Assembly (NCBI RefSeq): GCF_002278035.1
Contig: NZ_CP022604.1
Coordinates: 2,155,501-2,219,500, forward strand
From: Ochrobactrum quorumnocens
Lineage (GTDB): Bacteria > Pseudomonadota > Alphaproteobacteria > Rhizobiales > Rhizobiaceae
Direction: 5' to 3'
DNA: 64,000 nt
Every line of letters starts with the position of its first letter. Position 1 is the first letter of the stretch. The position numbers were made by a program, and so were the translations under genes. Shown here in pieces: positions 36,259-56,721 of the stretch. A model generated the notes under the pieces. That model did not search any database and was not told the origin of the DNA. It saw only the letters and a program-made list of their open reading frames with translations.

Positions 36259-36261
36259 GGT

Positions 36262-36549
36262 TCATCGCCCTTCGCTGGGGGCCGGTGACGCTGGCGCGGG
36301 GGACGGACGCAGGAAACGGTCGCGCGTTTCCGCCCAGACGCGCAGGCATTCGGCGTCGTTCGCGGCCTGTTGCCCAAGCTGCTGGCACCGGCGCTGCCCC
36401 TCGCGCAGCGGATCATGCGGAGGTTCGATGATGCGCGTGGAGAACTCCTCTTTCGGCTCCTCCTTTCGGGTTAGTTCGACGACCGCCGCCGTGATGGCGA
36501 CGGCGACGAACACGACAGCGCCCAGCCGGGCCAACATCTTACCGTCCAT
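36262..36549 (-). CDS. TrbK-alt-type entry-exclusion protein
   Basis: The ATG at 36549 gives a 95-residue protein with one N-terminal membrane segment (ARLGAVVFVAVAITAAVVEL) and a charged tail containing RCQQLGQQAANDAECLRVWA with two Cys residues. This is the alternative TrbK pattern found between trbJ and trbL in such operons. It is thought to block mating with cells that already hold the element. It lacks a lipobox, so the anchor is the membrane segment. Confidence 0.8.
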   Translation of the reverse strand: MDGKMLARLGAVVFVAVAITAAVVELTRKEEPKEEFSTRIIEPPHDPLREGQRRCQQLGQQAANDAECLRVWAETRDRFLRPSPAPASPAPSEGR

Positions 36550-36559
36550 AAGCCCGCCC

Positions 36560-37324
36560 TCAGTTGCCGTTGAACATCTGCGCATTGCCCGGCTGGTAGC
36601 CTGAACCCGGCGTCAGGAAGCGGCGGCGCTGCTCCCGCCCCTGCTCGGCCGCAGCCGTGCGCTCGGCTTCGGTCAGCGCGCCGGCACGCCCATTGGCGGC
36701 AAGCAACGCCACCAGATCGGAGAGCTGCTGCGACTGGAGTGCGAGCAGTTGGTTGCCAGCCTGCGTTGCCTGAAGTGCGCCGGTCGCGCCCTGGCTTTGG
36801 CTCACCAGTTCACTCATCTGCGTGCGGTTGGTGTCGATGTTGCCGACGACACCCGCCTGGACGCGCATGGCGTCCTGCAGGCCGCCGACCGTGTTCTGCC
36901 AGCGCGAGCGCGCGTCGGAGACGAGTTGCTGGTCCGTGGCCGACATGGAGACGTTGCCGTATTGCTGCTGGAACGCCTGGTCGATCCGCTGCACATCGAA
37001 GGCGATGTTCTGCGCCTCGCTCAGAAGCTGCTTCGTGCGCTGGACATTCTGCAGAAGCTGCTGGAGCGAGGAGAACGGCAGGCTCGCAAGATTGCGGGCT
37101 TGGTTCATCAGCATCGTGGCCTCATTCTGAAGAGAGGTGATCTGGTGGTTGATCTGCTCCAGCGTGCGCGCGGCAGTCAGGACGTTCTGCGCGTAGTTGG
37201 AAGGATCGTAGACAATCTTCCACGCATAGGCGGGCGCGGTCGCGAACGGCGAGATCGCAAGCGGCATGGCAAGCATGGTCGCCGCGAGAACAGCGGAGTA
37301 TTTACGAAGTCGACGGATGCTCAT
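36560..37324 (-). CDS. trbJ: TrbJ mating-pair-formation protein (VirB5-like)
   Basis: I chose ATG 37324, which overlaps the trbE stop. A signal peptide (LAATMLAMPLAISPFATAPA) precedes a largely alpha-helical Gln-rich protein of about 230 mature residues (TARTLEQINHQITSLQNEAT). TrbJ is the periplasmic, pilus-associated VirB5-like component. The longer frame upstream is read inside trbE and is not used. Confidence 0.9.
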   Translation of the reverse strand: MSIRRLRKYSAVLAATMLAMPLAISPFATAPAYAWKIVYDPSNYAQNVLTAARTLEQINHQITSLQNEATMLMNQARNLASLPFSSLQQLLQNVQRTKQLLSEAQNIAFDVQRIDQAFQQQYGNVSMSATDQQLVSDARSRWQNTVGGLQDAMRVQAGVVGNIDTNRTQMSELVSQSQGATGALQATQAGNQLLALQSQQLSDLVALLAANGRAGALTEAERTAAAEQGREQRRRFLTPGSGYQPGNAQMFNGN

Positions 37325-39777
37325 GGCTGAAGCTCCTTTTCGGGTTGGGGGACGAGTGTTTGGACATTGGGAAGGAGATCGACGGCCCAACCGACCTCGC
37401 GGGCGTTGAGCCACGCGGTCAGGAAACCGTCGCGGCCATGCTCGGCGAAGATCTGGTCGATCAGCGTTTGATCGGATTTCGAGGATGCAGCGCAGAGCGC
37501 GAGACCGACTTCGGACAGGCCGAGCTCGAACAGACGATTGCCGCGGCGTGACTGACAGTAGTAGTCCCGCTTTGGCGTCGCCCGCGCGAGGATCTCGATC
37601 TGGCGATCATTGAGACCGAACCGGCGATAGATCGCCGTGATCTGTGGCTCGATCGCGCGCTCGTTCGGCAGGAGCAGTCGCGTCGGGCAGCTTTCGATGA
37701 TGGCCGGAGCAATGTCGGAATTGTCGATGTCGGAAAGCGACTGCGTGGCGAAGATGACGCTGGCGTTCTTCTTGCGGAGCGTCTTCAGCCATTCGCGGAG
37801 CTGGCCGGCGAAGCCTTCGTCGTCGAGCACCAGCCAGCCCTCGTCGATGATGAGCAGCGTCGGCCGCCCATCGAGCCTGTCGCCGATGCGATGGAAGAGA
37901 TAGGCGAGCACAGCCGGGGCTGCGCCCGTCCCGACCAGCCCCTCGATCTCGAATGCCTGTACGTCCGCCGAGCCGAGATGTTCAGCTTCGGCATCCAGCA
38001 GCCGACCGTAAGGACCGCCGACACAGTAAGGCCGGAGCGCCTGCTTGAGATCGTTGGACTGAAGAAGAACGCTGAGGCCAGTGATCGTGCGCTCGCCGAC
38101 CGGCGCCGAGGCAAGCGAGGTGAGCGCCGTCCAGATATGCTCCTTTGCCTCCGGCGTGATCTTGATGCCTTCGTGCATCAGGATCGCGACGATCCAGTCG
38201 GCGGCCCAGGCGCGTTCATAGGTATCGTGAATGCGGGCCAACGGCTGGAGCGATACCGAGGCGTCCGATCCTTCGGTCAGTCCGCCGCCGAGATCGTGCC
38301 AGTCGCCGCCCATGGCGAGCGCGGCGGCACGGATCGAGCCGCCGAAGTCGAAGGCGAAGACCTGGCTGCGGAGGTACCGGCGGAACTGCAAAGCGATGAG
38401 CGCGAGCAGCACGGATTTGCCCGCGCCCGTCGGGCCGACAACGAGCGTGTGGCCGACATCGCCGACATGCAAAGACAACCGGAACGGGGTCGAACCTTCG
38501 GTTCTGCCGTAAAGCAGCGGGGGCGCATCGAAGTGTTCGTCCCGTTCCGGCCCCGCCCACACGGCAGAGAGGGGGATCATGTGGGCGAGATTGAGCGTCG
38601 AGATCGGCGGCTGTCGCACATTGGCGTAGACATGGCCGGGCAGACTGCCGAGCCAGGCATCGACGGCGTTCACCGTCTCGATCATGGCCGTGAAGTCGCG
38701 GCCCTGGATGACCTTCTCGACCAGCCGCAGTTTTTCATCGGCGATGCGCGGGTCGGCGTCCCAGACCGTGATGGTCGCGGTGACATAGGCCATGCCGGCG
38801 ACATCCGCGCCGAGTTCCTGCAAGGCCATGTCCGCGTCGGCTGCCTTGTTCGCGGCGTCAGTGTCCACGAGCACCGATTGCTCGTTGGTCATCACCTCCT
38901 TGAGGATCGCGGCAATCGACTTTCGCTTGGCGAACCACTGCCGCCTGATTTTGGCCAGCAGCTTCGTCGCGTCGGTCTTGTCGAGCAGGATCGCGCGCGT
39001 CGACCAGCGATACGGGAAAGCCAGCCGGTTCAGGTCGTCAAGCAGGCCCGGCGTGGTCGCCGTCGGGAAGCCGACGATGGTCAGCACACGCAGATTCTGG
39101 TCGCCAAGACGCGGCTCCAGACCGCCGGTAAGCGCCTGGTCGGTGAGCAGCGCGTCGAGATAGACCGGCGTTTCCGGCACACGGACACGGTGGCGTTTTG
39201 TCGACACGCAGGAATGCAGGTAGGTCAGCGTCTCGCTGTCATCGAGCCAACCGCAGGAGGGCATGAAGCCATCGAGCAGCGCCAGCACGCGATCGGTGCG
39301 GTCGGTGAAGGCGCGCAGGATTTCGTGCGGGTCGACGCCCGAGCGCTCCCGGCCTTCGTAAAGCCAGGACTCGGTGCGCGCGGCTTCCTCGGCCGGCGGA
39401 AGAAACAGGAATGTCAGAAAATAACTCGATACGAAATGCGCGCCGGCTTCTTCGAAATCGGCCTTGCGTTCGGCATCGACCAAAGCCGACGCGGGATCGG
39501 GAAAGATGTTGTCGGGATAGGTGGCGGCCTCGTACCGTTGCGCCTCGACGAAAATGCTCCAGCCCAGGCCAAGGCGGCGGAAAGCGTTATTGATGCGGCT
39601 CGCAACGGCAACCAGCTCGGCCGCGACGGAGGAATCCAGATCTGGACCCCGAAAGCGGGCCGTGCGCTGGAAAGAGCCATCCTTGTTCAGCACGATGCCG
39701 GGAGCGACCAGAGCGACCCAGGGCAGATAGTCGGCAAGGCGGGCGGCGGAGCGGCGGTATTCGGCGAGATTCATCAT
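37321..39777 (-). CDS. trbE: TrbE/VirB4 conjugal transfer ATPase
   Basis: The tandem ATG at 39777/39774 gives about 818 residues starting MMNLAEYRRSAARLADYLPW; an upstream extension overlapping trbD is a shadow. The Walker A motif GPTGAGKS lies near residue 450, Walker B (TLLIIDEGWLVLDDE) further on, and the VirB4 motif FATQSLSDIDNSDIAPAIIE after it. It is the inner-membrane-associated ATPase that powers pilus assembly and DNA transfer. Confidence 0.94.
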   Translation of the reverse strand: MMNLAEYRRSAARLADYLPWVALVAPGIVLNKDGSFQRTARFRGPDLDSSVAAELVAVASRINNAFRRLGLGWSIFVEAQRYEAATYPDNIFPDPASALVDAERKADFEEAGAHFVSSYFLTFLFLPPAEEAARTESWLYEGRERSGVDPHEILRAFTDRTDRVLALLDGFMPSCGWLDDSETLTYLHSCVSTKRHRVRVPETPVYLDALLTDQALTGGLEPRLGDQNLRVLTIVGFPTATTPGLLDDLNRLAFPYRWSTRAILLDKTDATKLLAKIRRQWFAKRKSIAAILKEVMTNEQSVLVDTDAANKAADADMALQELGADVAGMAYVTATITVWDADPRIADEKLRLVEKVIQGRDFTAMIETVNAVDAWLGSLPGHVYANVRQPPISTLNLAHMIPLSAVWAGPERDEHFDAPPLLYGRTEGSTPFRLSLHVGDVGHTLVVGPTGAGKSVLLALIALQFRRYLRSQVFAFDFGGSIRAAALAMGGDWHDLGGGLTEGSDASVSLQPLARIHDTYERAWAADWIVAILMHEGIKITPEAKEHIWTALTSLASAPVGERTITGLSVLLQSNDLKQALRPYCVGGPYGRLLDAEAEHLGSADVQAFEIEGLVGTGAAPAVLAYLFHRIGDRLDGRPTLLIIDEGWLVLDDEGFAGQLREWLKTLRKKNASVIFATQSLSDIDNSDIAPAIIESCPTRLLLPNERAIEPQITAIYRRFGLNDRQIEILARATPKRDYYCQSRRGNRLFELGLSEVGLALCAASSKSDQTLIDQIFAEHGRDGFLTAWLNAREVGWAVDLLPNVQTLVPQPEKELQP

Positions 39778-39788
39778 GATCGCGCTCC

Positions 39789-40070
39789 TCACACCGCCAG
39801 GAAAGCCGGAATGCGCAGATGCCTGCGCCCGACCTCGACAAAGAGCGGATCGCGACGGGCCGCCCAGACGGCCACGAAATGACCGATCGCCCAAATGGCG
39901 AGGCCGACGAGCCAGAGGCGCAGGCCGAGGCCCACGGCCCCGGCCAGCGTGCCGTTCATGATCGCGATGGAACGCGGCGCGCCGCCGAGCAGGATGTGCT
40001 CGGTCAAGGCGCGATGGACAGGCACCGTAAACCCCGGCACCGCGTCGAGTTGTTCGAGGACGGCCGCCAT
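39789..40070 (-). CDS. trbD: TrbD/VirB3 conjugal transfer protein
   Basis: This 93-residue protein has the VirB3 signature VPVHRALTEHILLGGAPRSI followed by two close hydrophobic segments (TLAGAVGLGLRLWLVGLAIW). It sits in the inner membrane with TrbE. The start abuts the trbC stop with a 1-bp overlap. Confidence 0.9.
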   Translation of the reverse strand: MAAVLEQLDAVPGFTVPVHRALTEHILLGGAPRSIAIMNGTLAGAVGLGLRLWLVGLAIWAIGHFVAVWAARRDPLFVEVGRRHLRIPAFLAV

Positions 40071-40480
40071 CAGACAAGCACCCCGCCGCCGAAGCTGAAG
40101 AAGCTGAGGAAGAACGAGCTGGCCGCGAAGGCGATCGACAGACCGAATACGATCTGGATCAGGCGGCGGAAGCCGCCGCTTGTGTCGCCGAAGGCGAGCG
40201 CCAGGCCGGTGGCGATGATGATGATCACCGCCACAATCTTGGCCACCGGCCCCTCAATCGACTGGAGTATCTGCTGAAGCGGCTGCTCCCACGGCATGGA
40301 GGAGCCGGAGGCATGGGCTGGCGGCGTGGCGGCCAGCATCATGATGGTGAAGAGCGCGGTCGAACTGGCGAGACGCTTATAGCTGCCACGCATGATCGAG
40401 CCGGCGGGCAGCTCCGGGTCAACGGGCACCGTGGACAGGACGGGCGGATTGGACACATTCGGAATGACGGGCGAATTCAT
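40070..40480 (-). CDS. trbC: TrbC/VirB2 pilin
   Basis: The 136-residue precursor has a long N-terminal leader ending near TPPAHASGSS. Two hydrophobic helices follow (VAKIVAVIIIIATGLALAFG and FGLSIAFAASSFFLSFFSF) around a short basic loop. That is the usual layout of VirB2/TrbC pilins, processed by the TraF-type peptidase encoded at 50234. It overlaps trbB by 4 bp. Confidence 0.9.
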   Translation of the reverse strand: MNSPVIPNVSNPPVLSTVPVDPELPAGSIMRGSYKRLASSTALFTIMMLAATPPAHASGSSMPWEQPLQQILQSIEGPVAKIVAVIIIIATGLALAFGDTSGGFRRLIQIVFGLSIAFAASSFFLSFFSFGGGVLV

Positions 40481-41460
40481 TCAGCTTCTCCATTCGAGGT
40501 GGTTGCGGGGGTGATGCGGTAGTCGCCGGTGGCGGGATCGATGCCGTCGACGCGCGCGATCTCGGCCAGCCGTCGGGACGAGCCGCGCCCAGAGAGGACG
40601 GCGATGAGATCGATGGTCTCGGCGATCAGCGCGCGCGGGACGGTGACGACGGCTTCCTGGATGAGTTGCTCAAGACGGCGTAGGGCGCCGATGCCGGAGC
40701 CGGCATGGATTGTGCCGATGCCGCCCGGGTGGCCGGTGCCCCAGGCTTTGAGGAGGTCGAGAGCTTCCGCACCTCGTACCTCCCCGATGGGGATGCGGTC
40801 GGGCCTCAGGCGAAGCGATGAGCGAACAAGGTCGGAGAGCGTGGCAACGCCATCCTTGGTCCGCATGGCGACGAGGTTCGGCGCTGCGCATTGCAGCTCG
40901 CGGGTATCCTCGATGATGACGACACGATCTGCTGTCTTCGCCACCTCGGCGAGCAGCGCGTTGGTCAGCGTTGTCTTGCCGGTGGAAGTGCCCCCAGCGA
41001 CGAGTATGTTGGCGCGGGACTGGACCGCTGCGCGCAGCTTCACTGCCTGATCGGCCGTCATGATGTCGGCGGCCACATAATCGTCGAGCGTGAAGACCGC
41101 GACAGCCGGCTTGCGAATAGCGAAGGCGGGTGACGCTACGACTGGTGGAAGCAGGCCCTCAAAACGCTCACCTGTTTCCGGCAACTCGGCCGAGACGCGC
41201 GGCGAGCGGGCGTGGACCTCCGCACCGACATGGTGCGCGACCAGACGCACGATGCGCTCGCCATCGGCGGCCGTCATCGTCTCGCCGGTGTCGGCCAGCC
41301 CTTCGGAAAGCCGATCCACCCAGATGCGCCCATCGGGGTTCAGCATCACCTCGACCACGGCCGGGTCTTCCAGAAACCGCGCGATTGCCGCTCCGAGCGC
41401 GGTGCGCAGCATGCGCGCTCCGCGCTGGATCGCTTCCTGTCTGTGGTGGGTGGATGCCAT
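40477..41460 (-). CDS. trbB: TrbB/VirB11 secretion ATPase
   Basis: This 327-residue hexameric traffic ATPase has Walker A GGTSTGKT at residues 156-163. The Asp box follows in [12 protein letters not shown], then Walker B-like [18 protein letters not shown] and the His box [15 protein letters not shown]. It starts the trb operon. In related elements the copG-type gene lies directly upstream, but here 3.2 kb of other genes intervene. Confidence 0.94.
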
Positions 41461-45091: not shown

Positions 45092-47077
45092 CTACAGCTC
45101 CATGCCGTCATTCGGATCGAGCGAGACCTGCCGCGCGACACCCTGCATCTGGCGGAGCATGCGCCGGTTGCGAATTGCCTCCTCATCAATATCATCCGGC
45201 GGCTCGATCTCGAACTCATTCTCGATCGGCGCCTTCTTCTTTACCGGCTTTACCCGGTGCAGTTCGTGCTGCAGCCGCCGTTCGGATTCGGTCGGATCCT
45301 CGTCGTCGGATCGGCCTGCCGGCTGCGCATCGAGCGCTTCCGGCCGCGCCGGGATCGGCAGGCTACTCCAGTCGTCCGGGCGAACCTGATCCGGGCGCTT
45401 CAGGTCGGGCGGCGACAGCAGGCGCTCACGGAAACGGGCATCCTCATAGTAGCGGGCCTTCTTGGCCCGGATCGGCGGAATGCCGGCAACCATGACGATC
45501 TCGTCGGTGGGCGGAAGCTGCATGATCTCGCCCGGCGTGAGCAACTGGCGGGCGGTTTCCGAGCGGGACACCATCAGGTGGCCGAGCCAGGGCGACAGAC
45601 GGTGCCCGGCATAGTTTTTCATGGCCTTCATCTCGGTGGCCGTCCCGAGGGCGTCCGAGACGCGCCTGGCCGTCCGCTCGTCGTTCGTCGCGAAGCTCAC
45701 GCGAACATGGCAGTTGTCGAGGATCGAATTGTTCGGCCCATAGGCTTTCTCGATCTGGTTCAGCGATTGCGCGATCAGGAAGCTCTTCAACCCATACCCC
45801 GCCATGAAGGCCAGAGCGGTCTCGAAGAAGTCGAGGCGGCCGAGCGCGGGAAACTCGTCGAGCATGAGGAGGAGACGATGGCGCCCGGTCTTCGCCTGGA
45901 GCTCTTCGGTCAGGCGACGGCCGATCTGATTGAGCAGCAGGCGGATCAGCGGCTTGGTCCGGTTGATGTCGCTGGGCGGCACGACGAGGTAGAGCGTCGT
46001 CGGATGCTCGCCGCCGACGATGTCGCTGATCCGCCAGTCGCAACGGCGCGTGACCTCCGCGACCACTGGATCGCGATAGAGGCCGAGAAACGACATGGCG
46101 GTGGAGAGAACGCCGGATCGCTCGTTGTCGGATTTGTTGAGCAGCTCGCGCGCGGCACTCGCGACGACAGGGTGGGGGCCGACCTCGCCCAGATGCGCCG
46201 TCTTCATCATGGCGCGCAGCGTCGACTCCACCGGGCGCTTCGGGTCGGAAAGGAAGTTCGCCACGCCGGCGAGCGTTTTTTCCGGCTCGGCATAGAGGAC
46301 ATGAAGGATCGCGCCGACGAGAAGCGAGTGGCTGGTTTTTTCCCAGTGATTCCTCTTGTCCAACGACCCTTCGGGATCGACCAGGATGTCAGCGATGTTC
46401 TGGACATCGCGCACCTCCCATTCGCCGCGGCGGACCTCGAGCAGCGGATTGTAGGCGGAGGATTTTGGGTTGGTCGGGTCGAACAGCAGTACGCGCCCGT
46501 GGCGCGAACGGAAGCCGGATGTGAGCTGCCAGTTCTCGCCCTTGATATCATGCACGATGGCCGAGCCCGGCCATGTCAGAAGTGAGGGCACAACCAATCC
46601 GACACCCTTGCCCGATCGCGTCGGCGCAAAGCACAGCACATGCTCCGGCCCGTCATGACGCAGATATTCGCGTTCGTATCGGCCCAGCACCGCACCATCG
46701 GGATCGAGCAGACCGGCAGCCTCGATCTCGGGCTTCTCTGCCCAGCGGGCCGAACCATAGGTGGCGACGTTCTTCTGTTCGCGCGCCCGCCAGACCGACA
46801 TGCCGATAGCTACCGCGATGGCGATGAACCCGCCTGATGCCGCGATGATACCGCCGGTAGCGAAGATACCCGGCGCATAGGCGTCGTAAAAATACCACCA
46901 CCACATGATGGCTGCCGGAAAGTAGATCGGCACGCCCAACAGCGTGAACCACGGCTCGCCGAGCTGCGCCTGATAGCCGAGGCTCCAGGCGACATACTGC
47001 GTCGCGCCCCAGGTGGTGGTGAGGACGATGAGGAACACGATCAGGATCTGTCCCCAGAGGATCTTGGTGCCTGACAT
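45092..47077 (-). CDS. traG: TraG/VirD4 type IV coupling protein
   Basis: This 661-residue ATPase starts with membrane segments (ILIVFLIVLTTTWGATQYVA, VPIYFPAAIMWWWYFYDAYA, IIAASGGFIAIAVAIGMSVW). Walker A APTRSGKGVG spans residues 151-160, and Walker B sits in LLLMLDEFPALG. VirD4 proteins bind the relaxase-bound strand and pass it to the Trb channel. The gene is 24 bp from the relaxase gene, on the same strand. Confidence 0.94.
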   Translation of the reverse strand: MSGTKILWGQILIVFLIVLTTTWGATQYVAWSLGYQAQLGEPWFTLLGVPIYFPAAIMWWWYFYDAYAPGIFATGGIIAASGGFIAIAVAIGMSVWRAREQKNVATYGSARWAEKPEIEAAGLLDPDGAVLGRYEREYLRHDGPEHVLCFAPTRSGKGVGLVVPSLLTWPGSAIVHDIKGENWQLTSGFRSRHGRVLLFDPTNPKSSAYNPLLEVRRGEWEVRDVQNIADILVDPEGSLDKRNHWEKTSHSLLVGAILHVLYAEPEKTLAGVANFLSDPKRPVESTLRAMMKTAHLGEVGPHPVVASAARELLNKSDNERSGVLSTAMSFLGLYRDPVVAEVTRRCDWRISDIVGGEHPTTLYLVVPPSDINRTKPLIRLLLNQIGRRLTEELQAKTGRHRLLLMLDEFPALGRLDFFETALAFMAGYGLKSFLIAQSLNQIEKAYGPNNSILDNCHVRVSFATNDERTARRVSDALGTATEMKAMKNYAGHRLSPWLGHLMVSRSETARQLLTPGEIMQLPPTDEIVMVAGIPPIRAKKARYYEDARFRERLLSPPDLKRPDQVRPDDWSSLPIPARPEALDAQPAGRSDDEDPTESERRLQHELHRVKPVKKKAPIENEFEIEPPDDIDEEAIRNRRMLRQMQGVARQVSLDPNDGMEL

Positions 47078-47101: not shown

Positions 47102-48841
47102 TTAGAGACCGAGCCCCCGCTTGCGGCCGAAGTCCCAGTCGATGCCGCCGTCGTCGCGGGCGACGCCGGAGACGTGGCGACCGATCTGCTTTTCGAGAGA
47201 CGGCGACCAGGGAACGAGCTGGAAGCCGAGGCCGTCGTCGATCATGGCGAACCGGCCGGAAGCGAGCGCGAGGCGCTGGCGATAGGAACCGGCGACATAT
47301 TCGCCGCCGCCGGCTTGGTTGAATGACAGGCCGGTCTCCGCGGCGAGCTTTTCGCCCAGCGCACCGACCTCGCGCTGGCGAAGCGTGTTGAGCAGCCGCC
47401 GGGCGAAGACGACACGCCCGCCCTGCCACTCGGCTAGACCCTCACCGATGAGGTGCTCGGCCCGTTGGTCAAGAGCCTGCTGCACCTCGGCGCCGAAGCC
47501 GCCTTCCGAGAGGGCTATCGGTTCGCGAGCAACGGCTTGGCGATCGAGCCAGGTCGCACCCGTTGCGTCGACCTGCGCGTGGATATCCAGATCGGAGCGG
47601 ACGGCGAGCGCGACGCGGCGCTGGCCTTGCGCATCCTCGTAGGCGCGCAGCTCGACGATCGAGCCCGGCGGGCTGTCGCCGGCAGCGTCCATAGGCGGTA
47701 GCTTGATGTGATGGGTGCGCCCGTCCACGCCGTCGACCACGGCATAGGCCGTCCCCTTCAGCTCGTCATCGAGACCGCGTTCGAGCAGGCGGCCGACGAC
47801 GGGCACGTCGAGGCTTTCGCCGGCCAGGACATAGCTCGCCGAGCCGCGCTCGATGCCGCGTTCGGTGAGCGTGTGGTGCATGCGCTTGATGATGTCACCG
47901 CGCTCGCCGAGTTCGCGCAGGACACTCTCCCCCTCGGGCCTGATGAACCATTGCGAATGGCCGACCTGTCCGGCGACGCCGAGAATTTCCAGCGTCCGCA
48001 GCCGGCCGACCTTCAAGGCGTGGAATTCGTCCGGCTGTCGGTCGGCGCGCGGCGCGAGGTCGATGATGCCGGACTTGCCCGCGTCGCGGACGAGTTGCCG
48101 GTCAAGCTGCGTCCAGCGCTCCGTCTCGATCTGGCTCTCGAGGGTGCGGCGGATATCGAGATCGGTGCGCGGTCCCAACTCCTGGGTGATGAGCTCGCGC
48201 GCCCGGTCGCGCATGCCCTCCTTGATGTAGTCGCGCGAGATCACGAGGTCCTGGCCGTCGTCCCTCACGCCCCGCACGATCAGGTGGACATGCGGATGCT
48301 CGGTGTTCCAGTGATCGACGGCCACCCAGTCGAGCTTCGTGCCGAGATCCTTTTCCATCTGGCCGACGTGATCACGAGTGAAGGATCTGAGATCGGCCAT
48401 GTCGGGCGCGTCGTCGGGCGAGACGATGAAGCGGAAATGGTGCCGGTCATCACCACAGCGCTCTGCGAAGGCGCGGGCATCCGCATTCTCCGTTCCCGGC
48501 CCGAACAGCCGCGCCTTCTCCCCATCACGGGTCACGCCGTCGCGGCGCAGATAATCGAGATGGGTTCCGAGCGGTGCGGACCGGGGGGAGTGGCGGACCA
48601 CACGCGCCTTCACGACGGCGCCGCGGGTGCGCGACGTGATGAGGCGGTTGGCCTGAATGCTGGCGCGCTGGCCACGCCCGAAGCGTGAGCGATTGCCAGA
48701 GGTGACGCGGCCGGAGCGCGAGACGCCGCCGCCTGCCTTCTTCGCTGCGGCGAGCGCCTGCGCAACGAAAGGCCGGCTCTGTTGCGCGCGGGTCGATCGG
48801 ATGCGCCCCGGACGGATGCGGAACTCGTGGTCATCGGACAT
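47102..48841 (-). CDS. MOBP-type relaxase with DUF3363 region (RlxS/VirD2-like)
   Basis: I chose ATG 48841; a GTG at 48856 is possible. The protein (about 579 residues) starts with a basic segment. A candidate catalytic Tyr lies in GTHLDYLRRDGVTRDG, and the metal-binding His cluster is in VDHWNTEHPHVHLIVRGVRD. The C-terminal two-thirds is the DUF3363 region. It nicks oriT, stays bound to the 5' end and leads the strand into the recipient. The candidate oriT lies immediately upstream. Confidence 0.92.
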   Translation of the reverse strand: MSDDHEFRIRPGRIRSTRAQQSRPFVAQALAAAKKAGGGVSRSGRVTSGNRSRFGRGQRASIQANRLITSRTRGAVVKARVVRHSPRSAPLGTHLDYLRRDGVTRDGEKARLFGPGTENADARAFAERCGDDRHHFRFIVSPDDAPDMADLRSFTRDHVGQMEKDLGTKLDWVAVDHWNTEHPHVHLIVRGVRDDGQDLVISRDYIKEGMRDRARELITQELGPRTDLDIRRTLESQIETERWTQLDRQLVRDAGKSGIIDLAPRADRQPDEFHALKVGRLRTLEILGVAGQVGHSQWFIRPEGESVLRELGERGDIIKRMHHTLTERGIERGSASYVLAGESLDVPVVGRLLERGLDDELKGTAYAVVDGVDGRTHHIKLPPMDAAGDSPPGSIVELRAYEDAQGQRRVALAVRSDLDIHAQVDATGATWLDRQAVAREPIALSEGGFGAEVQQALDQRAEHLIGEGLAEWQGGRVVFARRLLNTLRQREVGALGEKLAAETGLSFNQAGGGEYVAGSYRQRLALASGRFAMIDDGLGFQLVPWSPSLEKQIGRHVSGVARDDGGIDWDFGRKRGLGL

Positions 48842-48852
48842 GACGTGACCCC

Positions 48853-49060
48853 GCACGGTGCAAAAAGGACCAGAAAATCAGGAAGATGGGCGCGGAGCGC
48901 ACGGTGCGCGAAGGCGCTGCACGGTGCGGAACGCGCCAAAAATATGAACAAAAACAACCGCCCGACCGAAGCGCACCGTGCGCCCTTTTATCCTGCCATC
49001 GTTCGGTTGCTGCGCCTGCCGCCACCCACGGCGCTCTCCAGAACACGCCAGCGCACGGTG
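48853..49060. other. oriT: Candidate origin of transfer (oriT)
   Basis: The 243-bp gap upstream of the relaxase gene contains TATCCTGC at 48991-48998, the core of the IncP-type nic site (nick expected between 48997 and 48998 on this strand). A 13-bp dyad, GCGCACCGTGCGC, stands 5 bp to its left (48973-48985). The block GCACGGTGC occurs at 48853, 48898 (inside a second 13-bp dyad at 48897-48909) and 48919, inverted at 48975, and partially at 49053. Between them lies an AT-rich run (48938-48957). This is the layout of a MOBP oriT. Confidence 0.8.
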
Positions 49061-50233: not shown

Positions 50234-50779
50234 TCACCGCGTCGGCGCGCGCCAGACAAAGTGGCCGTCGCCGTCCTCGTCGGTGAAAAGCGGGGTGGCC
50301 CGGCCGATCACCGCCGCGGCGGGGAATGGGCCGAAGTAGCGACCGTCGAGGCTGTCGGCGGCCTCGAGGTTCATGAGGAAAAGTTCGTCGCCGGCGATGA
50401 CACGGCAGCCCCGCCAGACCGGCAGGTCGCGGCCAGGGCTGTCGCGGTCGCGGGCCTCGCCAAGCGGAACGTCGTCGACCGTGACGGCGCGGCCGTTGCG
50501 GCATACGCGCTGACCCGGCAGGCCAACGACGTGCTTGAGGATCGGCACGTCGCGGGCGACATAGCCGCGTTCGACCATGAAGGAGGCGAACGGCTTCGGC
50601 GCCATGACGGCGACGAGATCCGGCACTTCGATCCGCTCGGCCGGCGATATCGTGTAGAAGCCGATCGGCGCGCTCGCCGTCGCATTCCAGATGAGTTTCA
50701 GCGGCACCGGCATGGCGCCGGCCGCGGCGATGCCGAGCACGGCGACGGATGTCGCCGCGAGATAGCCGAGCCGCGTCAT
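50234..50779 (-). CDS. traF: TraF-type S26 signal peptidase
   Basis: This 181-residue protein has an N-terminal membrane segment (LGYLAATSVAVLGIAAAGAM). The catalytic Ser36 is in NATASAPIGFY and Lys82 in VPILKHVVGLPGQRV. These are the Ser/Lys dyad of S26 peptidases such as TraF of RP4, which matures the TrbC pilin by cyclisation. The substrate here is probably the TrbC protein at 40070. The start overlaps the DUF2840 stop by 4 bp. Confidence 0.9.
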   Translation of the reverse strand: MTRLGYLAATSVAVLGIAAAGAMPVPLKLIWNATASAPIGFYTISPAERIEVPDLVAVMAPKPFASFMVERGYVARDVPILKHVVGLPGQRVCRNGRAVTVDDVPLGEARDRDSPGRDLPVWRGCRVIAGDELFLMNLEAADSLDGRYFGPFPAAAVIGRATPLFTDEDGDGHFVWRAPTR

Positions 50780-51294
50780 CGTCCGAACTCCCGCCGTCGG
50801 AGCCAGGCTTGGTGGCGCTCGGCCGTGTACGGGCGCGGCGTCTCGCCGGCATTCATCCAGTGCGCGACGTGCCGCCAGTGATCGGGATCGGCGTCGGCGG
50901 GATCGATGCCGAGGGCCTCGATGCCGTCGACATGGCGAAGCACGTCCTCGACCTTGGGCCAGCTTTCGACCTTCAGCAGGATTTCGCCGCCAGGACGCAC
51001 GAAGGGCAGCGTCTGGAACGGCTCGCCGCGATCGACCGCGCGGACGATGTCCAGGCGCGAGATGATCGTTCCGTACTCGTTCGCTGCCCAGCGAACGAGG
51101 CAGAAGACCGTGCCGGGCGCGAAGCCGACCACCCTGTGCCGGCGGTCGAGTTTCTGCTCGTAGCTTTCGCGGCCGAACCTGATCCAGTTCTCGATGCGCT
51201 TTTCGATCCAGGTGAGCTCGACGAGCGTGGTGAAAGCGGCGGGACCGTCCGGCAACAGACGACCGCCGATGCGGAGCGCCGCATTGCCGGTCAT
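50776..51294 (-). CDS. DUF2840-family protein
   Basis: This 172-residue protein contains LTWIEKRIENWIRFGRESYE, VVGFAPGTVFCLVRWAANEY and YGTIISRLDIVRAV, matching DUF2840, which is found beside traF in alphaproteobacterial conjugative elements. There is no signal peptide and the function is unknown. It overlaps both neighbours by ATGA. Confidence 0.85.
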   Translation of the reverse strand: MTGNAALRIGGRLLPDGPAAFTTLVELTWIEKRIENWIRFGRESYEQKLDRRHRVVGFAPGTVFCLVRWAANEYGTIISRLDIVRAVDRGEPFQTLPFVRPGGEILLKVESWPKVEDVLRHVDGIEALGIDPADADPDHWRHVAHWMNAGETPRPYTAERHQAWLRRREFGR

Positions 51295-51545: not shown

Positions 51546-52300
51546 GACGCGCCTCCGTCATGGAACGGCAGCACGGTGGCGATGCGGTCGCGGGCGCGGT
51601 CGGCCATCGTGGGGTCTATCTCGCAGCCGATATAGCGGCGGCCAGAGAGCCGGCAGGCTTCGCCCGCGGAGCCGGAGCCGGCGAACCAATCGCCGATCAG
51701 GCCGCCTTCCGGGCAGCTCGTGCGGATCAGGATTTCGAGGAGCGCCGACGGCTTTTCAGTCGGGTGGATCGCGCGGCCGTGGCAGTTGCGCAGGTAGATG
51801 ACCGAGCGCATGAGGCGCGGCCCGCCGTCGTGGCTGACATAGTGGCCAGCGTCGATCTGGCCGGTATGGGGCGGACGCTGCTTGCGCCGCACGGTGCGGG
51901 CCGTCGCGTCGGGCGTGGTTTGTGGGTCGTTGTAGATCGCGCGCCATGGCGTCTCGGCGGGGTAGAATTGAACGGCCAGTTCATGCACCCGCTTGAAGCG
52001 GTCCGCATGGAAGCCGGTGCCGTTCTGCTTCTCCCAGACGATCTCCTGGGCGAGCCGCAGGCCGGCGTCGGCGAAGCGGTCGGCGGTTGCCATGAAGCTG
52101 CGCAGCGAACCGAAGACCCACATCGAGCCGGTCGGGGCAAGCGCGCCGCGCGCGAGCGCCAGCCAGCCCTCGACGCGGCGATCCCAGGCGAGCGATGTCT
52201 CCCCGTAAGGGGGATCGGCGAGGATCATGTCGAACGGGCCCCGCGCCGGCATGCGATCGCGGCAGTCTCCGGACAATATGATTTCGGGGAGAACCGTCAT
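51542..52300 (-). CDS. Solitary adenine/cytosine-N4 DNA methyltransferase
   Basis: The catalytic motif DPPY is at residues 29-32 and the AdoMet motif GDWFAGSGSAGEACRLSGR lies near the C terminus, with the target-recognition region between, which is the order of beta-class enzymes. It is 252 residues long. No restriction gene is near, so it is an orphan methylase: it may protect the element from host restriction or mark it for replication control. It overlaps parA and the RHH gene by 4 bp each. Confidence 0.9.
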   Translation of the reverse strand: MTVLPEIILSGDCRDRMPARGPFDMILADPPYGETSLAWDRRVEGWLALARGALAPTGSMWVFGSLRSFMATADRFADAGLRLAQEIVWEKQNGTGFHADRFKRVHELAVQFYPAETPWRAIYNDPQTTPDATARTVRRKQRPPHTGQIDAGHYVSHDGGPRLMRSVIYLRNCHGRAIHPTEKPSALLEILIRTSCPEGGLIGDWFAGSGSAGEACRLSGRRYIGCEIDPTMADRARDRIATVLPFHDGGAS

Positions 52301-52950
52301 GTCGCGGTCCTCCCGATGCCGAGACGCTCGACCTCGGCCGCCAGTGCCGCGATCTCGCGCGCGGCGGGCGAACGCCGGTCGATGTCTGACGCGAGCCGCC
52401 CGGTCTGCGCGGCGTCGGCGAAGACGACGCGCTGGCCGATCGTTGTGGCGAGCACTGGCGGATCGTGATCAGCCAGGGTCTCGGCCGTCTCGCGAGCGAT
52501 GACGGTGCGGGCGCCGCAGCTGTTCAGCACGAAACGGGCGGTGAGCTGGGGCCGGTAGATGCGCGCCTCCGCCAGGAGCGCCAGCATCTCGGCGGAGGCC
52601 CAGCCGTCGAGCGGTGACGGCTGCACCGGGATCAGCACGAGGTCGGCGGCGAGCAGCGCGGAGCGCATGAGGCCGGCGACACGCGGCGGGCCATCGATGA
52701 CAACGTGATCGACGTCTCGCGCGAGTTCGGGTGCCTCGCGATGCAGCGTGTCGCGTGCCAGGCCGACGACGCCAAAGGCGCGTGGCAGGTTCTCGCGCGA
52801 GCGCTGCTGCGACCAGTCGAGCGCCGAGCCCTGCGGGTCGGCGTCGATCAGGGTCACGCGCTTGCCGCGCATCGCCAGTTCGCCGGCGAGATGCAGCGCG
52901 AGCGTCGTCTTACCGACGCCGCCTTTCTGGTTGAGAAGCGCGACGATCAT
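52297..52950 (-). CDS. parA: ParA-family partition ATPase
   Basis: This 217-residue protein has the deviant Walker A motif QKGGVGKTTLA at residues 8-18, LIDADPQGSALDWSQQR and VVIDGPPR. It lacks an N-terminal HTH, so it is a small type Ib-like ParA. With a DNA-binding partner it segregates or stabilises the circular form of the element. It overlaps the rep gene by 4 bp. Confidence 0.92.
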   Translation of the reverse strand: MIVALLNQKGGVGKTTLALHLAGELAMRGKRVTLIDADPQGSALDWSQQRSRENLPRAFGVVGLARDTLHREAPELARDVDHVVIDGPPRVAGLMRSALLAADLVLIPVQPSPLDGWASAEMLALLAEARIYRPQLTARFVLNSCGARTVIARETAETLADHDPPVLATTIGQRVVFADAAQTGRLASDIDRRSPAAREIAALAAEVERLGIGRTAT

Positions 52951-54128
52951 CGGCGTCCTCCCGGTGGATCGAGAGGAAGACGGGACGTATCGGGATCAGT
53001 GGATGGAGAGGCCCCACCGGGGCGGCTTGTAGCCGTCTGTGGCGGCTCGGCTGGCGCGCTTGGCGCGCTCTTCCTGGCGGTAGCGCTGAGGCTTCTCGCG
53101 GCGTCGCGGATGAGGTTTTCCACATCGCGCGCGCGCGCTTTAAGGTTAGAGTCTTTGTTAGACTCTAAGTTAAGGGCGCGATTTCGTGTGGAGTTTCCGT
53201 GCGTTAAACCCTGTTTGGGTTCCTGATAGCACGAGCCTCGGGTTCCCGATAGCACGATAGTCCGGGTTCCCGATAGCACGAGGCTATCCACAGGTTGTCC
53301 ACAGGCCGGAGACGGCTCGAAGGCGAGCAGCAGGCGCCCACCGATCTCGGCTTCGAGAAAGAGCCTGTAGCCGGGCAGCGGCTGACGCCGGATGATGTCG
53401 CGCAGCTCGAAGGCGAAGCGTTTGAACGGCGACAGGCTGCCGGATTTCTGGTGAAGGTGACGGAAGTCGAAGCGCCATCCATCGCGCTGGCGGCCGCCGT
53501 GCTTGCGCACCAGGCGGTAAAGCCAGCGGTCTAGGCCGCCGGTCAGATCGAAATAGGTCCGGTCGATCGTGAGCACGAGCGCGTCATCGAGGACGGCCTG
53601 GTAGAACCAGTCCGGCACGATCAGCTCGATGCCCTCGGGGCGGCCGTTGCGGTCAGTGCGTTCCTGCCACTCGTTGATCCACGAGAAGCGATGACGGCGG
53701 CCTTCGGCAGGCTGTCGGATCGAGGTGGAAACAGTGGTCGATTGCAGGCGGTCGAGGGCGGCTTTCAGGCGCTGATAGTCGCGCGAGCTGGTGCCCCGGC
53801 CGACATAGGTGAGGATTTCGTAGGGCGTGGCGGCCATCAGCCGCGAGGTGCGAAGCCCGTTATCGCGGGCTTCGACGATCTGGCTCGCCGCCCAGATCAG
53901 GATGTCGGCGTCCCAGATCGTGGCCATGCCATGATCGGGGACCGCCTCGACCCGGATCGTCACGTTGCCGGCGACGAAATCGATCGGAGCAACGCGATGG
54001 GTCTTGGATAGGGAGAAGAAGGGATAGGCCATGAGATCCTGCGCGTCTCGTGGCGCGAAGTCGCCGGGAAGCGCGCGGAACAGATCGAGCTGCCCGCGCT
54101 CCGAAAGGGATCGACGCCGCACCGCCAT
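52947..54128 (-). CDS. repA: RepA-type replication initiator (RPA family)
   Basis: This 393-residue protein matches the replication-initiator-protein-A family: DLMAYPFFSLSKTHRVAPID, IWDADILIWAASQIVEARDN, then YVGRGTSSRDYQRLKAALDR and DRWLYRLVRKHGGRQRDGWR. The core ends near residue 280. The C-terminal tail is low in complexity because its codons contain the iterons at 53217-53281. It should initiate replication of the excised element or plasmid by binding these repeats. It is co-transcribed with parA. Confidence 0.9.
   Translation of the reverse strand: MAVRRRSLSERGQLDLFRALPGDFAPRDAQDLMAYPFFSLSKTHRVAPIDFVAGNVTIRVEAVPDHGMATIWDADILIWAASQIVEARDNGLRTSRLMAATPYEILTYVGRGTSSRDYQRLKAALDRLQSTTVSTSIRQPAEGRRHRFSWINEWQERTDRNGRPEGIELIVPDWFYQAVLDDALVLTIDRTYFDLTGGLDRWLYRLVRKHGGRQRDGWRFDFRHLHQKSGSLSPFKRFAFELRDIIRRQPLPGYRLFLEAEIGGRLLLAFEPSPACGQPVDSLVLSGTRTIVLSGTRGSCYQEPKQGLTHGNSTRNRALNLESNKDSNLKARARDVENLIRDAARSLSATARKSAPSAPAEPPQTATSRPGGASPSTDPDTSRLPLDPPGGRR
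53217..53303. other. oriV: Iterons and DnaA-box-like sites within repA (candidate oriV)
   Basis: GGGTTCCYGATAGCACGA occurs three times at 53217-53234, 53240-53257 and 53264-53281, a 23-24 bp period. Two DnaA-box-like nonamers follow, CTATCCACA (53284-53292) and TTGTCCACA (53295-53303), each one base from TTATCCACA. The array lies in the 3' third of the rep coding region and changes no reading frame. Confidence 0.75.
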
Positions 54129-54146: not shown

Positions 54147-54428
54147 TCAGCGTGCGTAGCGGCCGAGCTGCGGCCCGGAGTGAATGACGTGGCGCTTCGC
54201 CGGCAGCACGGAGCCGCGCGGATCAGATGTCGACGTCACCGCGCCGCGAGCGGCCCAGGTTTCGAGATCGTCGATGGCATAGACGACGCGGCCGCCGAGC
54301 TTGCGATAGGCCGGGCCTGTTCCGTAGGTCCGGTGCTTTTCGAGGGTGCGCGCCGAAAGGCTGAGAAACTCGGCGGCTTCCTTGGTGCGCAGGAAGCGCG
54401 GCGGGAGAACGACGGGATCATGTGGCAT
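54147..54428 (-). CDS. AlpA/excisionase-like helix-turn-helix protein
   Basis: The 93-residue product contains PPRFLRTKEAAEFLSLSART, LEKHRTYGTGPAYRKLGGRV and VYAIDDLETWA, the winged-helix layout of AlpA, MerR-like excisionases and recombination directionality factors. It lies 141 bp downstream of the DUF6499/DUF2285 pair and 18 bp upstream of rep. In ICEMlSymR7A the frameshifted activator switches on a gene of this kind to trigger excision, so a directionality-factor role is a good guess. Confidence 0.82.
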   Translation of the reverse strand: MPHDPVVLPPRFLRTKEAAEFLSLSARTLEKHRTYGTGPAYRKLGGRVVYAIDDLETWAARGAVTSTSDPRGSVLPAKRHVIHSGPQLGRYAR

Positions 54429-54569
54429 GGATCGAGCCTCCGTGGTGTCGGTGAGAGCCGTCGCGGATCAGCGGCGGACAACGACCACGGTGGCGGAGGA
54501 GAGCCGGCGAGTTGCAGGGCGAAGTTAGGGGGCATCAAATTCGCCCGCCACAAAGGGGGCGAGACCGCG

Positions 54570-55226
54570 CTAGGGTCGTCGGCGATGACGAAGGAGTTTT
54601 CGATATCCGCCCGCGATCATGGCTTTAGCATCGCGCAGAAGGGTCTTGATCTTGTGACGGGCCTCCGACGCCTGCCATGCGTCGCGGTCGAGACGATCGA
54701 TACTGAAGATGACCTCGGCGATTTCCTGCTGCGTCGCGCCGGCCCGGTATCCGTCAAAGGCACGCAGCATTCGGCGCTGGCGGGAGCGCATCTGTCGCGT
54801 CAGCCGCGTGTCGGGGGGAATGGCCCGGCCGTGCAAAGCCGAGAGAAGGCGATACACGGCTTCGATCCGGTCGAAGCCCTCAATGCCGAGAGGGATCGCG
54901 GCAACAGAAGGCGTGTGCCCGTCAATGGCGCGGTCAATGATCTGGAGCGATTGCCCGTTCGCGAGACCGAAGCGAAACGCCGCGTCGTCATCTGCCAATG
55001 GCGGATCGCGTCGCCATGGTTCGGGGAAAACGCTTGAGATGCGTGAGCCAAGATCAAGCGGCGCCTCGGTCAGCACGATAATGCTTGTATCCTCCTGCGG
55101 GAGCCAGAAAACCGGAGCTTCCGGCGGCGGTATCAGGGGATCGACCGGGAAATCGCAACCCCCACCGCTGTCGGATTCGCTCGGTCGGTGGTTCGGGCAC
55201 TTCGCGAGCGGAGGCCGAAGCCTCAA
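54570..55226 (-). CDS. DUF2285-domain C-terminal half of an FseA-like activator
   Basis: The frame encodes VDPLIPPPEAPVFWLPQEDT, then a C-terminal DUF2285 helix-turn-helix-like domain (DTRLTRQMRSRQRRMLRAFD, GATQQEIAEVIFSIDRLDRD, HKIKTLLRDAKAMIAGGYRK). Its first 27 codons are only a shadow of the overlapping DUF6499 gene and show no homology. The two halves of the usual single protein join at 55143-55152, where a +1 shift from the DUF6499 frame gives RWGLRFP-VDPLIPPP and a 256-residue fusion. It probably has no start of its own. Confidence 0.8.
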   Translation of the reverse strand: MRLRPPLAKCPNHRPSESDSGGGCDFPVDPLIPPPEAPVFWLPQEDTSIIVLTEAPLDLGSRISSVFPEPWRRDPPLADDDAAFRFGLANGQSLQIIDRAIDGHTPSVAAIPLGIEGFDRIEAVYRLLSALHGRAIPPDTRLTRQMRSRQRRMLRAFDGYRAGATQQEIAEVIFSIDRLDRDAWQASEARHKIKTLLRDAKAMIAGGYRKLLRHRRRP

Positions 55227-55341
55227 AATCCGCGTCGTAGGCGTCGTTACGGCGGAGCCATTCCCAAGCCAGATCGGACGCGGTCAGCTTATCCAGATGG
55301 TCATATTCCGAAGAACGCCAGGTCGATGCATCAGGTGTCAT
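55054..55341 (-). CDS. DUF6499 N-terminal half of an FseA-like activator
   Basis: From ATG 55341 the product reads MTPDASTWRSSEYDHLDKLT, ASDLAWEWLRRNDAYDADFE and ERIRQRWGLRFP, the conserved DUF6499 region. After that the frame runs through meaningless sequence to a stop at 55054. The overlap with the DUF2285 frame and the loss of homology exactly at TTT-CCC-GGT point to a regulated +1 frameshift that joins the halves. The short product may be made most of the time. Confidence 0.8.
   Translation of the reverse strand: MTPDASTWRSSEYDHLDKLTASDLAWEWLRRNDAYDADFEASASAREVPEPPTERIRQRWGLRFPGRSPDTAAGSSGFLAPAGGYKHYRADRGAA
55143..55152 (-). promoter_or_regulatory. Candidate +1 programmed ribosomal frameshift site
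   Basis: In the DUF6499 frame the codons are CGA-TTT-CCC-GGT; slipping one base from CCC to CCG gives GTC-GAT-CCC, the DUF2285 frame. Homology to one-piece relatives switches frame exactly here. In ICEMlSymR7A the equivalent msi172/msi171 pair is joined by +1 frameshifting into FseA. A sequencing error or simple mutation is the alternative. Confidence 0.65.
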
Positions 55342-55451: not shown

Positions 55452-55730
55452 CTATAGAGGCCCGCGCTGGCTTTCACGAACCAGTTGGCGATAGCCGTGT
55501 TCGGTCATCCAGCGGGCACGTGCGAGATGTGCATCATGAATCGAGCGGCAGCGCTTGGGATCGCGGTCGGGGTCAAGGCCAAAGAGGACATGAACCGCCT
55601 CGCGCCAGTCTGCGCCATCGCGGTCGGCATCGAGCAGCCGCATGTAGAGTTTCATGTGCTCGCGATCATAAGATGTAAGCGTTTCGCTGAACGGTGGTTC
55701 GTCCAGAAAGGTGTCTGTCGCCTGTCCCAT
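55452..55730 (-). CDS. Small stand-alone DUF2285 protein (QseM-like candidate)
   Basis: From ATG 55730 (a TTG at 55802 is possible) the product of about 92 residues reads DEPPFSETLTSYDREHMKLY, MRLLDADRDGADWREAVHVL, then FGLDPDRDPKRCRSIHDAHL and ARARWMTEHGYRQLVR, a single DUF2285 domain. In ICEMlSymR7A the antiactivator QseM is a stand-alone DUF2285 protein that blocks FseA and TraR. The adjacency to the DUF6499/DUF2285 pair makes the same role attractive here, but it is inferred. Confidence 0.78.
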   Translation of the reverse strand: MGQATDTFLDEPPFSETLTSYDREHMKLYMRLLDADRDGADWREAVHVLFGLDPDRDPKRCRSIHDAHLARARWMTEHGYRQLVRESQRGPL

Positions 55731-55828
55731 CAAGCCACCATAGTCACGCGCATTACGTTCGTTAACTATCTTACCGCAGGAGATAGACTCTTTTCTTGAC
55801 AAGGATTTGGTAATTTCGGTGTCCCGCC

Positions 55829-56080
55829 CTACCGGCGGGGAGAGTCGATCCTGTCGTGCAGGAGCAACACCCCTTCGCCCTTGTCCGTCGAGAGCAGAAC
55901 GATCCCAGCCGATTCGAGCGTCCGGCGCACCTGATCGCGCGTCGATTCGAACACCTCGAGGCCGTTTTCGGATTCGAGGCGCTTCAATGCGGTCAGTGCT
56001 ACTCGGGCCTTGTCAGCGAGCGTCTCCTGCGTCCAACCCAGCAACGCGCGTGCGGCCCGTGATTGTCGGGCGGTGATCAT
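55829..56080 (-). CDS. XRE-family helix-turn-helix regulator
   Basis: The 83-residue product is a single HTH domain (RQSRAARALLGWTQETLADK, ARVALTALKRLESENG) with a short C-terminal segment. GGAGG lies 9 bp before the ATG. A 17-bp dyad at 56123-56139, upstream of its start, is a likely autoregulatory operator. Genes of this type next to DUF2285 proteins control transfer in related elements. Confidence 0.82.
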   Translation of the reverse strand: MITARQSRAARALLGWTQETLADKARVALTALKRLESENGLEVFESTRDQVRRTLESAGIVLLSTDKGEGVLLLHDRIDSPRR

Positions 56081-56319: not shown

Positions 56320-56721
56320 TCAGAACGGGATGTCATCGTCGTCGATGAACTTGCCGTCCTCGCTTTCGGTCTGCTTCGCCCGGCTCAGGAAGTCGACCGT
56401 CTCGGCGATGATCTCGCATCCGTAGCGGTCGTTGCCCTGCTGGTCCGTCCACTTCGTGTAGTGAATGCGGCCGCGAACCAGAACCTTCATTCCCTTCTCG
56501 CAATACTCCTGGATCGTCTTGCCGAGGCCGTTGAAGGCGGTGATGCGGTGCCATTCCGTATCCTGGACCCGGTAGCCCCTTTCGTCCCGGACAACCTTGC
56601 CGTCCGAGTAGCGGGGGCGCGAGGTGGCCAGCGTGAAGTGGGTGATTCGGGTGCCGCCCTGGGTGGTGCGGGTTTCGGGGGCCTGACCGATGTTGCCGGC
56701 GAGAATGACGATGTTCTGCAT
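56320..56721 (-). CDS. ssb: Single-stranded DNA-binding protein
   Basis: I chose ATG 56721 with GGAG upstream; the longer frame has no homology. The 133-residue protein has the OB fold (NIVILAGNIGQAPETRTTQG, FTLATSRPRY, DTEWHRITAFNGLGKTIQEY, VLVRGRIHYTKWTDQQGNDR) and the acidic tip DDDDIPF that recruits partner proteins. It coats the transferred or replicating strand. A decayed second copy lies head-to-head at 56966. Confidence 0.92.
   Translation of the reverse strand: MQNIVILAGNIGQAPETRTTQGGTRITHFTLATSRPRYSDGKVVRDERGYRVQDTEWHRITAFNGLGKTIQEYCEKGMKVLVRGRIHYTKWTDQQGNDRYGCEIIAETVDFLSRAKQTESEDGKFIDDDDIPF

What the first reader, a model, noticed from the sequence alone, without database searches (positions are those of the whole stretch)
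54570..55341. FseA-like excision activator split across two frames, with a +1 slip site at TTT-CCC-GGT
The DUF6499 frame loses homology exactly at CGA-TTT-CCC, where the DUF2285 frame takes up the rest of the protein after skipping one base. Both halves are well conserved and neither is a sensible protein alone. In ICEMlSymR7A of Mesorhizobium, FseA is made by +1 programmed frameshifting of an overlapping gene pair carrying a DUF2285 domain, and activates the excision gene. Here an AlpA-like gene follows directly and a small DUF2285 protein precedes, so the whole switch appears to be present on an element with a different replication module.
Basis: partly seen in the sequence, partly recalled or inferred. 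Interest (0 to 1): 0.85.

Follow-up and report, generated by a model that had tools for sequence, protein, structure and literature searches.

The report
Frameshifted FseA switch on conjugative element
A gene that turns on the transfer of a mobile DNA element is written in two overlapping reading frames and seems to need a programmed ribosome slip to be read; it is a clear new copy of a switch already described in Mesorhizobium, here on an element that seems to be cut in and out by a different type of enzyme.

Summary
On the minus strand a DUF6499 frame (55341-55054) and a DUF2285 frame (to 54570) meet at TGG-GGG-TTG-CGA-TTT-CCC (55164-55147), the second frame being +1. 188 of 207 loci, the window's among them, share the split; 186 of those 188 have an in-frame TTT followed by C or T at the junction, and the wobble position shifts there by one base. 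The next codon and the zero-frame stop vary, so the core is TTT-C/T: most simply tRNA-Phe slips from UUU to UUC. A QseM relative (PDB 7uqt, E 2e-19), an RdfS relative (8dgl, E 2.9e-10) and a perfect 6-16-6 FseA box (54518-54545) complete the published switch. This is a known kind: about 61% of 4709 FseA homologues are published as split. The replication genes are those reported for non-symbiosis relatives. What differs: no autoinducer-binding LuxR gene was found on the element, and it appears to end in a tRNA-Met gene beside a large serine recombinase, with no tyrosine integrase found; recombinase relatives lie near fseA elsewhere too. The genus is Brucella sensu lato. Translation was not tested.

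The parts
55054..55341 (-). fseA part 1: DUF6499 (PF20109) frame, ATG at 55341 behind GGGAG, AWEWLRRN motif; unshifted product 95 aa
55147..55164 (-). +1 shift site TGG-GGG-TTG-CGA-TTT-CCC; slip codon TTT at 55150-55152
54570..55149 (-). fseA part 2 in the +1 frame from the slip on, DUF2285/RovC_DNA-bd (PF10074); the mechanical ORF reaches back to a TTG at 55226
54518..54545 (-). FseA box: GGCGAA-16-TTCGCC inverted repeat, 89 nt in front of the alpA/rdfS ATG; the only match without mismatch in the window
54147..54428 (-). AlpA/RdfS-like winged-helix excisionase (PF12728; PDB 8dgl RdfS E 2.9e-10)
55452..55802 (-). QseM-like lone DUF2285 protein (PDB 7uqt QseM E 2e-19; net charge of residues 33-108 is -3)
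55829..56080 (-). small Xre-type HTH gene next to qseM, in the position of qseC (weak HTH_3 match, 21.7 bits against a cut-off of 23)
52947..54128 (-). RPA replication initiator (PF10134)
52297..52950 (-). ParA partition ATPase (NF041546)
50776..51294 (-). DUF2840 protein
50234..50779 (-). TraF-type S26 peptidase (TIGR02771 94.3 bits, cut-off 100.25)
47102..48856 (-). RlxS-type relaxase (PF03432 and DUF3363)
45092..47077 (-). TraG-type coupling protein (PF02534)
32086..41460 (-). trb mating-pore genes; T2SSE/TrbB-type ATPase, TrbC, TrbE-type, TrbL and TrbI detected, ORFs in between not scanned

Best explanation
This is the fseA gene of an ICE of the ICEMlSymR7A kind. Its mRNA is read from ATG 55341; ribosomes that stay in frame make a 95-residue DUF6499 peptide with an unconserved tail. 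At UUU-C (55152-55149) some ribosomes slip one base forward: tRNA-Phe pairs with UUU, then with the overlapping UUC. They then read the +1 frame and make full FseA. FseA dimers bind the inverted repeat at 54518-54545 and start transcription of the RdfS-like gene and the genes behind it (rep, parA, traF, rlxS); the QseM-like protein holds FseA back by binding DUF6499. Shown by sequence: both domains, +1 register, conserved slip codon, box, QseM and RdfS relatives, gene order. Inferred from the R7A work: the actual slip, DNA binding, activation, antiactivation and excision.
For: Domains. Frames: 188 of 207 loci are +1, 80 of 80 named. In-frame TTT-C/T: 185 of 185 +1 loci with a Trp-Gly anchor, one more of the three without it; 1 of 11 same-frame loci with the anchor. 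Wobble variation moves from codon position 3 (mean entropies 1.17, 1.14, 1.57) to position 1 (1.49, 0.77, 0.54) across the site in 60 distinct sequences. At the site TTT is used in 79 of 79 and CGA in 78 of 79 anchored named loci, although elsewhere in these loci TTT is 20.7% of 2118 Phe and CGA 8.7% of 7900 Arg codons. In 73 of 79 the +1 frame has no ATG, GTG or TTG between its upstream stop and the slip, and in none of 79 is there one with a Shine-Dalgarno-like sequence. FseA box. QseM, RdfS. Gene order in 80 named loci: qseM upstream 80, xre 77, alpA and rpa downstream 74 each, parA 63.
Against: No translation, binding or excision was measured. In the window itself the DUF2285 frame is open upstream to a TTG (55226), so independent initiation is not excluded for this copy, and starts downstream of the slip were not examined. 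The right arm of the box lies 89 nt from the ATG, against 62-67 in the published logo, and the innermost arm position is symmetric in only 30 of 58 distinct regions. No PF03472 gene lies on the element, so the published input (TraR) was not found. The integrase type differs. Two of 188 +1 loci lack TTT (L010 has TGT; L210 carries stops) and 3 loci of 207 are +2.
Confidence: 0.93

Rival explanations
1. The gene is decayed: one extra base broke an ordinary fused gene.
For: 13 of 207 loci are in one frame; reads for this assembly were not available.
Against: 188 of 207 loci share the +1 split and 186 of these the slip codon; purifying selection acts on frame 0 before and on +1 after the site in 60 distinct relatives; 1 of 11 anchored same-frame loci has the TTT.
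Confidence: 0.02
2. Two separate proteins: DUF6499 and DUF2285 are translated independently and work as partners.
For: The window's +1 frame has a TTG at 55226; QseM shows that a DUF2285 domain can bind DUF6499 in trans (PMC10359603, abstract).
Against: 73 of 79 anchored named loci have no start codon in +1 between its upstream stop and the slip and none a Shine-Dalgarno-like one; codons up to the slip are conserved in frame 0 and those right after it in +1; 13 loci are fused.
Confidence: 0.03
3. The base is skipped by slippage of RNA polymerase rather than of the ribosome.
For: T and C runs at the site (TTT-CCC in 85 of 185, TTT-TTT in 4).
Against: In most loci the runs are three bases, and what follows TTT is free (CGC, CGT, CAC and others), whereas the codon register of TTT is kept.
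Confidence: 0.02

Closest known systems
FseA (msi172-msi171) of ICEMlSymR7A, Mesorhizobium japonicum
   Same: DUF6499 + DUF2285 in overlapping frames, +1 shift, WGL codons with a UGGGGG stretch at the slip, FseA box 6-16-6 before rdfS, QseM partner (PMC10359603, passages and section 18)
   Different: here fseA stands directly between qseM and the rdfS-like gene (in R7A the gene numbers suggest that fseA and rdfS lie apart); no PF03472 gene found on the element; box 89 nt from the ATG; rep, parA and DUF2840 between rdfS and traF; serine recombinase instead of IntS
QseM (PDB 7uqt)
   Same: lone DUF2285 with negative net charge, E 2e-19 over 76 residues
   Different: binding to DUF6499 not tested; no TraR target found on the element
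RdfS (PDB 8dgl)
   Same: winged-helix HTH_17 protein, E 2.9e-10, in front of the rep, traF and rlxS genes
   Different: sits on an element whose only detected integrase candidate is a serine recombinase
RovC of Yersinia (PDB 6xz5)
   Same: DUF2285 family by Pfam name
   Different: sequence match below significance (E 0.86)
Tn4371 and the non-symbiosis Mesorhizobium ICEs
   Same: replication initiator (called Rep_3 there, RPA by Pfam here) and DUF2840 between rdfS and traF (PMC8627217, passage)
   Different: 73 of the 79 ICEs and IMEs there carry tyrosine recombinases; [quoted passage not shown]

Membership tests
FseA | N-terminal DUF6499 with AWEFLRRN-like motif | tested here: met
   PF20109 E 3.7e-21, AWEWLRRN
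FseA | C-terminal DUF2285 | tested here: met
   PF10074 E 1.5e-31; net charge +9 over 103 residues
FseA | +1 split with a conserved slip site (about 61% of published homologues) | tested here: met
   (sequence only)
FseA | inverted-repeat FseA box before rdfS | tested here: met
   54518-54545, spacing 16; two arm positions change on both sides together in 12 of 58 distinct regions each, 9 and 8 of 58 are asymmetric there, and the innermost position is symmetric in 30 of 58; distance to the ATG differs
FseA | frameshifted protein activates PrdfS | not testable with these tools
   needs experiment
QseM | lone, negatively charged DUF2285 without DUF6499 | tested here: met
   (net charge of the sequence, not the surface)
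QseM | binds DUF6499 of FseA | not testable with these tools
   needs experiment
QseC | HTH regulator adjacent to qseM | tested here: inconclusive
   Xre-type gene adjacent, below the Pfam cut-off; a relative of it upstream in 77 of 80 named loci, in L248 only at a distance; no comparison with QseC itself
RdfS | sequence relative of RdfS in front of the rep, traF and rlxS genes | tested here: met
RdfS | directs excision | not testable with these tools
   needs experiment
ICEMlSymR7A-type ICE | trb pore, TraG, RlxS, TraF, DUF736 | tested here: met
ICEMlSymR7A-type ICE | TraR (autoinducer-binding LuxR type) on the element | tested here: not met
   the 3 PF03472 hits of the genome lie elsewhere
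ICEMlSymR7A-type ICE | tyrosine integrase | tested here: not met
   the 9 PF00589 hits of the genome lie outside the inferred element; serine recombinase at its right end

The most novel reading that the evidence does not exclude
The FseA frameshift switch and its RdfS-type winged-helix protein control excision of an ICE that is integrated by a large serine recombinase, so a directionality factor of the tyrosine-recombinase type would either help a serine integrase or, on these elements, act only as the transfer activator while another protein directs excision. Either way the switch has been coupled repeatedly to a different excision chemistry.
Probability: 0.25. Interest if true: 0.6.

Novelty: new member of a known kind. 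Interest (0 to 1): 0.35.

Why it matters
It shows by conservation that the split is functional rather than an assembly or annotation error. The comparison narrows the signal to an in-frame TTT followed by C or T, usually with CGA before it, with no sign of a needed stop codon or downstream stem, which makes the slip mechanism directly testable. The serine-recombinase context asks what RdfS does on such elements.

Tried and rejected
Sequencing error and decay. Independent initiation of DUF2285 upstream of the slip. A downstream RNA stem as stimulator: 167 distinct loci, 60 bases each, mean z -0.19, 4% below -2. A stop codon as stimulator: in the 185 anchored +1 loci the zero-frame stop lies 7 to 241 codons after TGG, median 21. 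The SD-like UGGGGG as a strict requirement: GGG in 113 of 167 distinct loci, GGC 28, GGT 20, GGA 6. A tyrosine integrase on the element: none. Structure prediction was not run. The original 2015 report of the FseA frameshift (recalled) is not held, so whether it already places the slip at UUU was not checked. Rows dropped before counts: L285 (no TGGGG anchor, though it reads CGA-TTT-CCC), 6 of the 204 loci with a frame call had no Trp-Gly anchor, and duplicates where 'distinct' is said.

Full report
WHAT IS THERE. The finding lies on the minus strand. An ATG at 55341 behind GGGAG opens a frame that encodes DUF6499 (Pfam PF20109, E 3.7e-21) with the motif AWEWLRRN and ends at 55054; an overlapping frame encodes DUF2285 (PF10074, E 1.5e-31) and ends at 54570. 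The frames meet at TGG-GGG-TTG-CGA-TTT-CCC-GGT (55164-55144). The DUF2285 frame is +1 to the first.

IS IT REAL. PF20109 was sought in 385 genomes of the class (25 with a match), 297 of the family (92) and 297 of the order (61). I examined 207 loci: all 29 rows (window included), all 150 and the best-scoring 29 further ones of the 90 rows (fetched). 188 of 207 have DUF2285 in the +1 frame, 13 in the same frame, 3 in +2, and 3 gave no DUF2285 hit. A scan of named genomes gave 80 loci, all +1; one of its six search patterns spans the slip, so this set leans towards +1, and some of its loci are also in the first set. The published survey (PMC10359603; abstract, passages and section 18 read) gives about 61% split among 4709 homologues; my sample is of one class, mostly of one family, and not comparable one to one. 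Reads of the window's assembly were not available.

THE SLIP SITE. All 185 +1 loci with a Trp-Gly anchor have an in-frame TTT followed by C or T at the junction. Of the three without the anchor, L213 has TTT-C, L010 has TGT and L210 carries stops: 186 of 188. Of 11 same-frame loci with the anchor 1 has TTT-C/T. The next zero-frame codon varies (CCC 85, CGC 51, CGT 13 and twelve others, of 185), and CGA precedes in 113 of 185. The zero-frame stop lies 7 to 241 codons after TGG, and the 60 bases downstream do not fold better than shuffles (167 sequences, mean z -0.19). So what is kept is a codon that tRNA-Phe can leave for UUC or UUU one base on; this is an inference about mechanism, in line with classic +1 slips (recalled). 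In 60 distinct named sequences (79 of 80 loci anchored) the synonymous position jumps by one base across the site: mean entropies by frame-0 codon position are 1.17, 1.14, 1.57 before and 1.49, 0.77, 0.54 after. TTT (79 of 79) and CGA (78 of 79) stand out against 20.7% and 8.7% use elsewhere in the same loci; the loci are related, so the tiny binomial probability printed there is not a fair one.

THE REST OF THE SWITCH. Upstream lie a QseM relative (PDB 7uqt, E 2e-19; net charge -3 against +9 for the DUF2285 of FseA) and a small Xre-type gene in the place of qseC. Downstream lies an RdfS relative (PDB 8dgl, E 2.9e-10). The intergenic stretch holds GGCGAA, 16 bases, TTCGCC at 54518-54545: the arm length and spacing published for the FseA box (PMC10359603, section 18). 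It is the only match without mismatch in 64 kb; with up to two mismatches there are 14 against 7.6 expected, reached by 2 of 100 shuffles. In 58 distinct regions (window included) two arm positions change together on both sides in 12 each, while 9 and 8 are asymmetric there, and the innermost position is symmetric in only 30. The box lies 89 nt from the ATG, not 62-67 as in the published logo. Gene order in the 80 named loci: qseM 80, xre 77, alpA 74, rpa 74, parA 63; some loci end early, and the six without alpA and rpa hits are Paracoccus.

THE ELEMENT. RPA, ParA, DUF2840 and TraF follow, then DUF736, a transglycosylase, RlxS, TraG and trb genes down to 32 kb. PMC8627217 (passages and section 16 read) says that a Rep initiator and DUF2840 between rdfS and traF are on all its ICEs except the symbiosis ICEs and one other, and on Tn4371, so this module is ordinary. 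To the right of the window a large serine recombinase (PF00239, PF07508, PF13408; window coordinates 77687-79345) runs into a tRNA-Met gene at 79302-79378, which is followed by 5S and 23S rRNA. A 12-base core at the tRNA end occurs three times in 284 kb: -24880, -15861 and 79303. In genome G975 the left chromosomal flank (88% identical) and the tRNA gene lie 49 bases apart, an empty site; in G983 about 480 bases lie between them. The ICE is then about 95 kb (-15861 to 79303), with a 9-kb passenger to its left; these edges are inferred. The genome's 9 tyrosine-recombinase hits and 3 PF03472 hits lie outside it. In the family sample 19 of 150 fseA places have a relative of this recombinase within 110 kb, most on contigs too short to tell; on contigs over 1 Mb holding both, 6 of 13 places against 1.4 expected, the window's own included (105 recombinase rows used, the last 24 not).

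HOST. Genome G503, of the window's genus, has a contig of 197,202 bases, the length of the Brucella pseudintermedia contig of locus L235, with the fseA match in the same place. The window is thus Brucella sensu lato; its 5.6 Mb fit the former Ochrobactrum species rather than classic Brucella (recalled); the species was not determined. Because the genus name is shared with listed species the two halves were searched apart and no bench test with this host is proposed.

VERDICT. A new member of a known kind, well supported. As far as my five paper searches show (listings), the copy itself, the narrowed slip core (not checked against the 2015 paper) and the recurrent pairing with serine recombinases are not described there; PMC8627217 reports one serine-type ICE among its elements.

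Noticed in passing
window coordinates 77687-79345 (L100:13687-15345) and tRNA-Met 79302-79378: Large serine recombinase whose reading frame runs into the tRNA-Met gene at the end of an rRNA operon; likely integrase of the ICE. Relatives lie within 110 kb of 19 of 150 fseA places of the family sample.
   Followed up: partly
L110:15559-18458 (window coordinates -24441 to -21542): Short prokaryotic Argonaute beside a TIR-type partner (PADLOC pAgo_I E 2e-207, Aga_TIR E 4.7e-150) in a 9-kb passenger in the same tRNA gene.
   Followed up: no
L100:9052-12438: HerA-type helicase next to a SIR2_2 gene near the right end of the ICE, possibly a defence pair.
   Followed up: no
window 51542-52300: Orphan-type N6/N4 DNA methylase between the parA and DUF2840 genes.
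   Followed up: no
window 56320-56775 and 60310-63993: Element-borne single-strand binding protein upstream of the xre gene, and a helicase of strawberry-notch type whose frame runs past the window's end.
   Followed up: no
L134 and L207: Two fseA loci keep the slip site but have the DUF2285 frame in +2, as if a further indel followed.
   Followed up: no
window coordinates 82001-87000: A run of N in the genome as held, outside the element.
   Followed up: no
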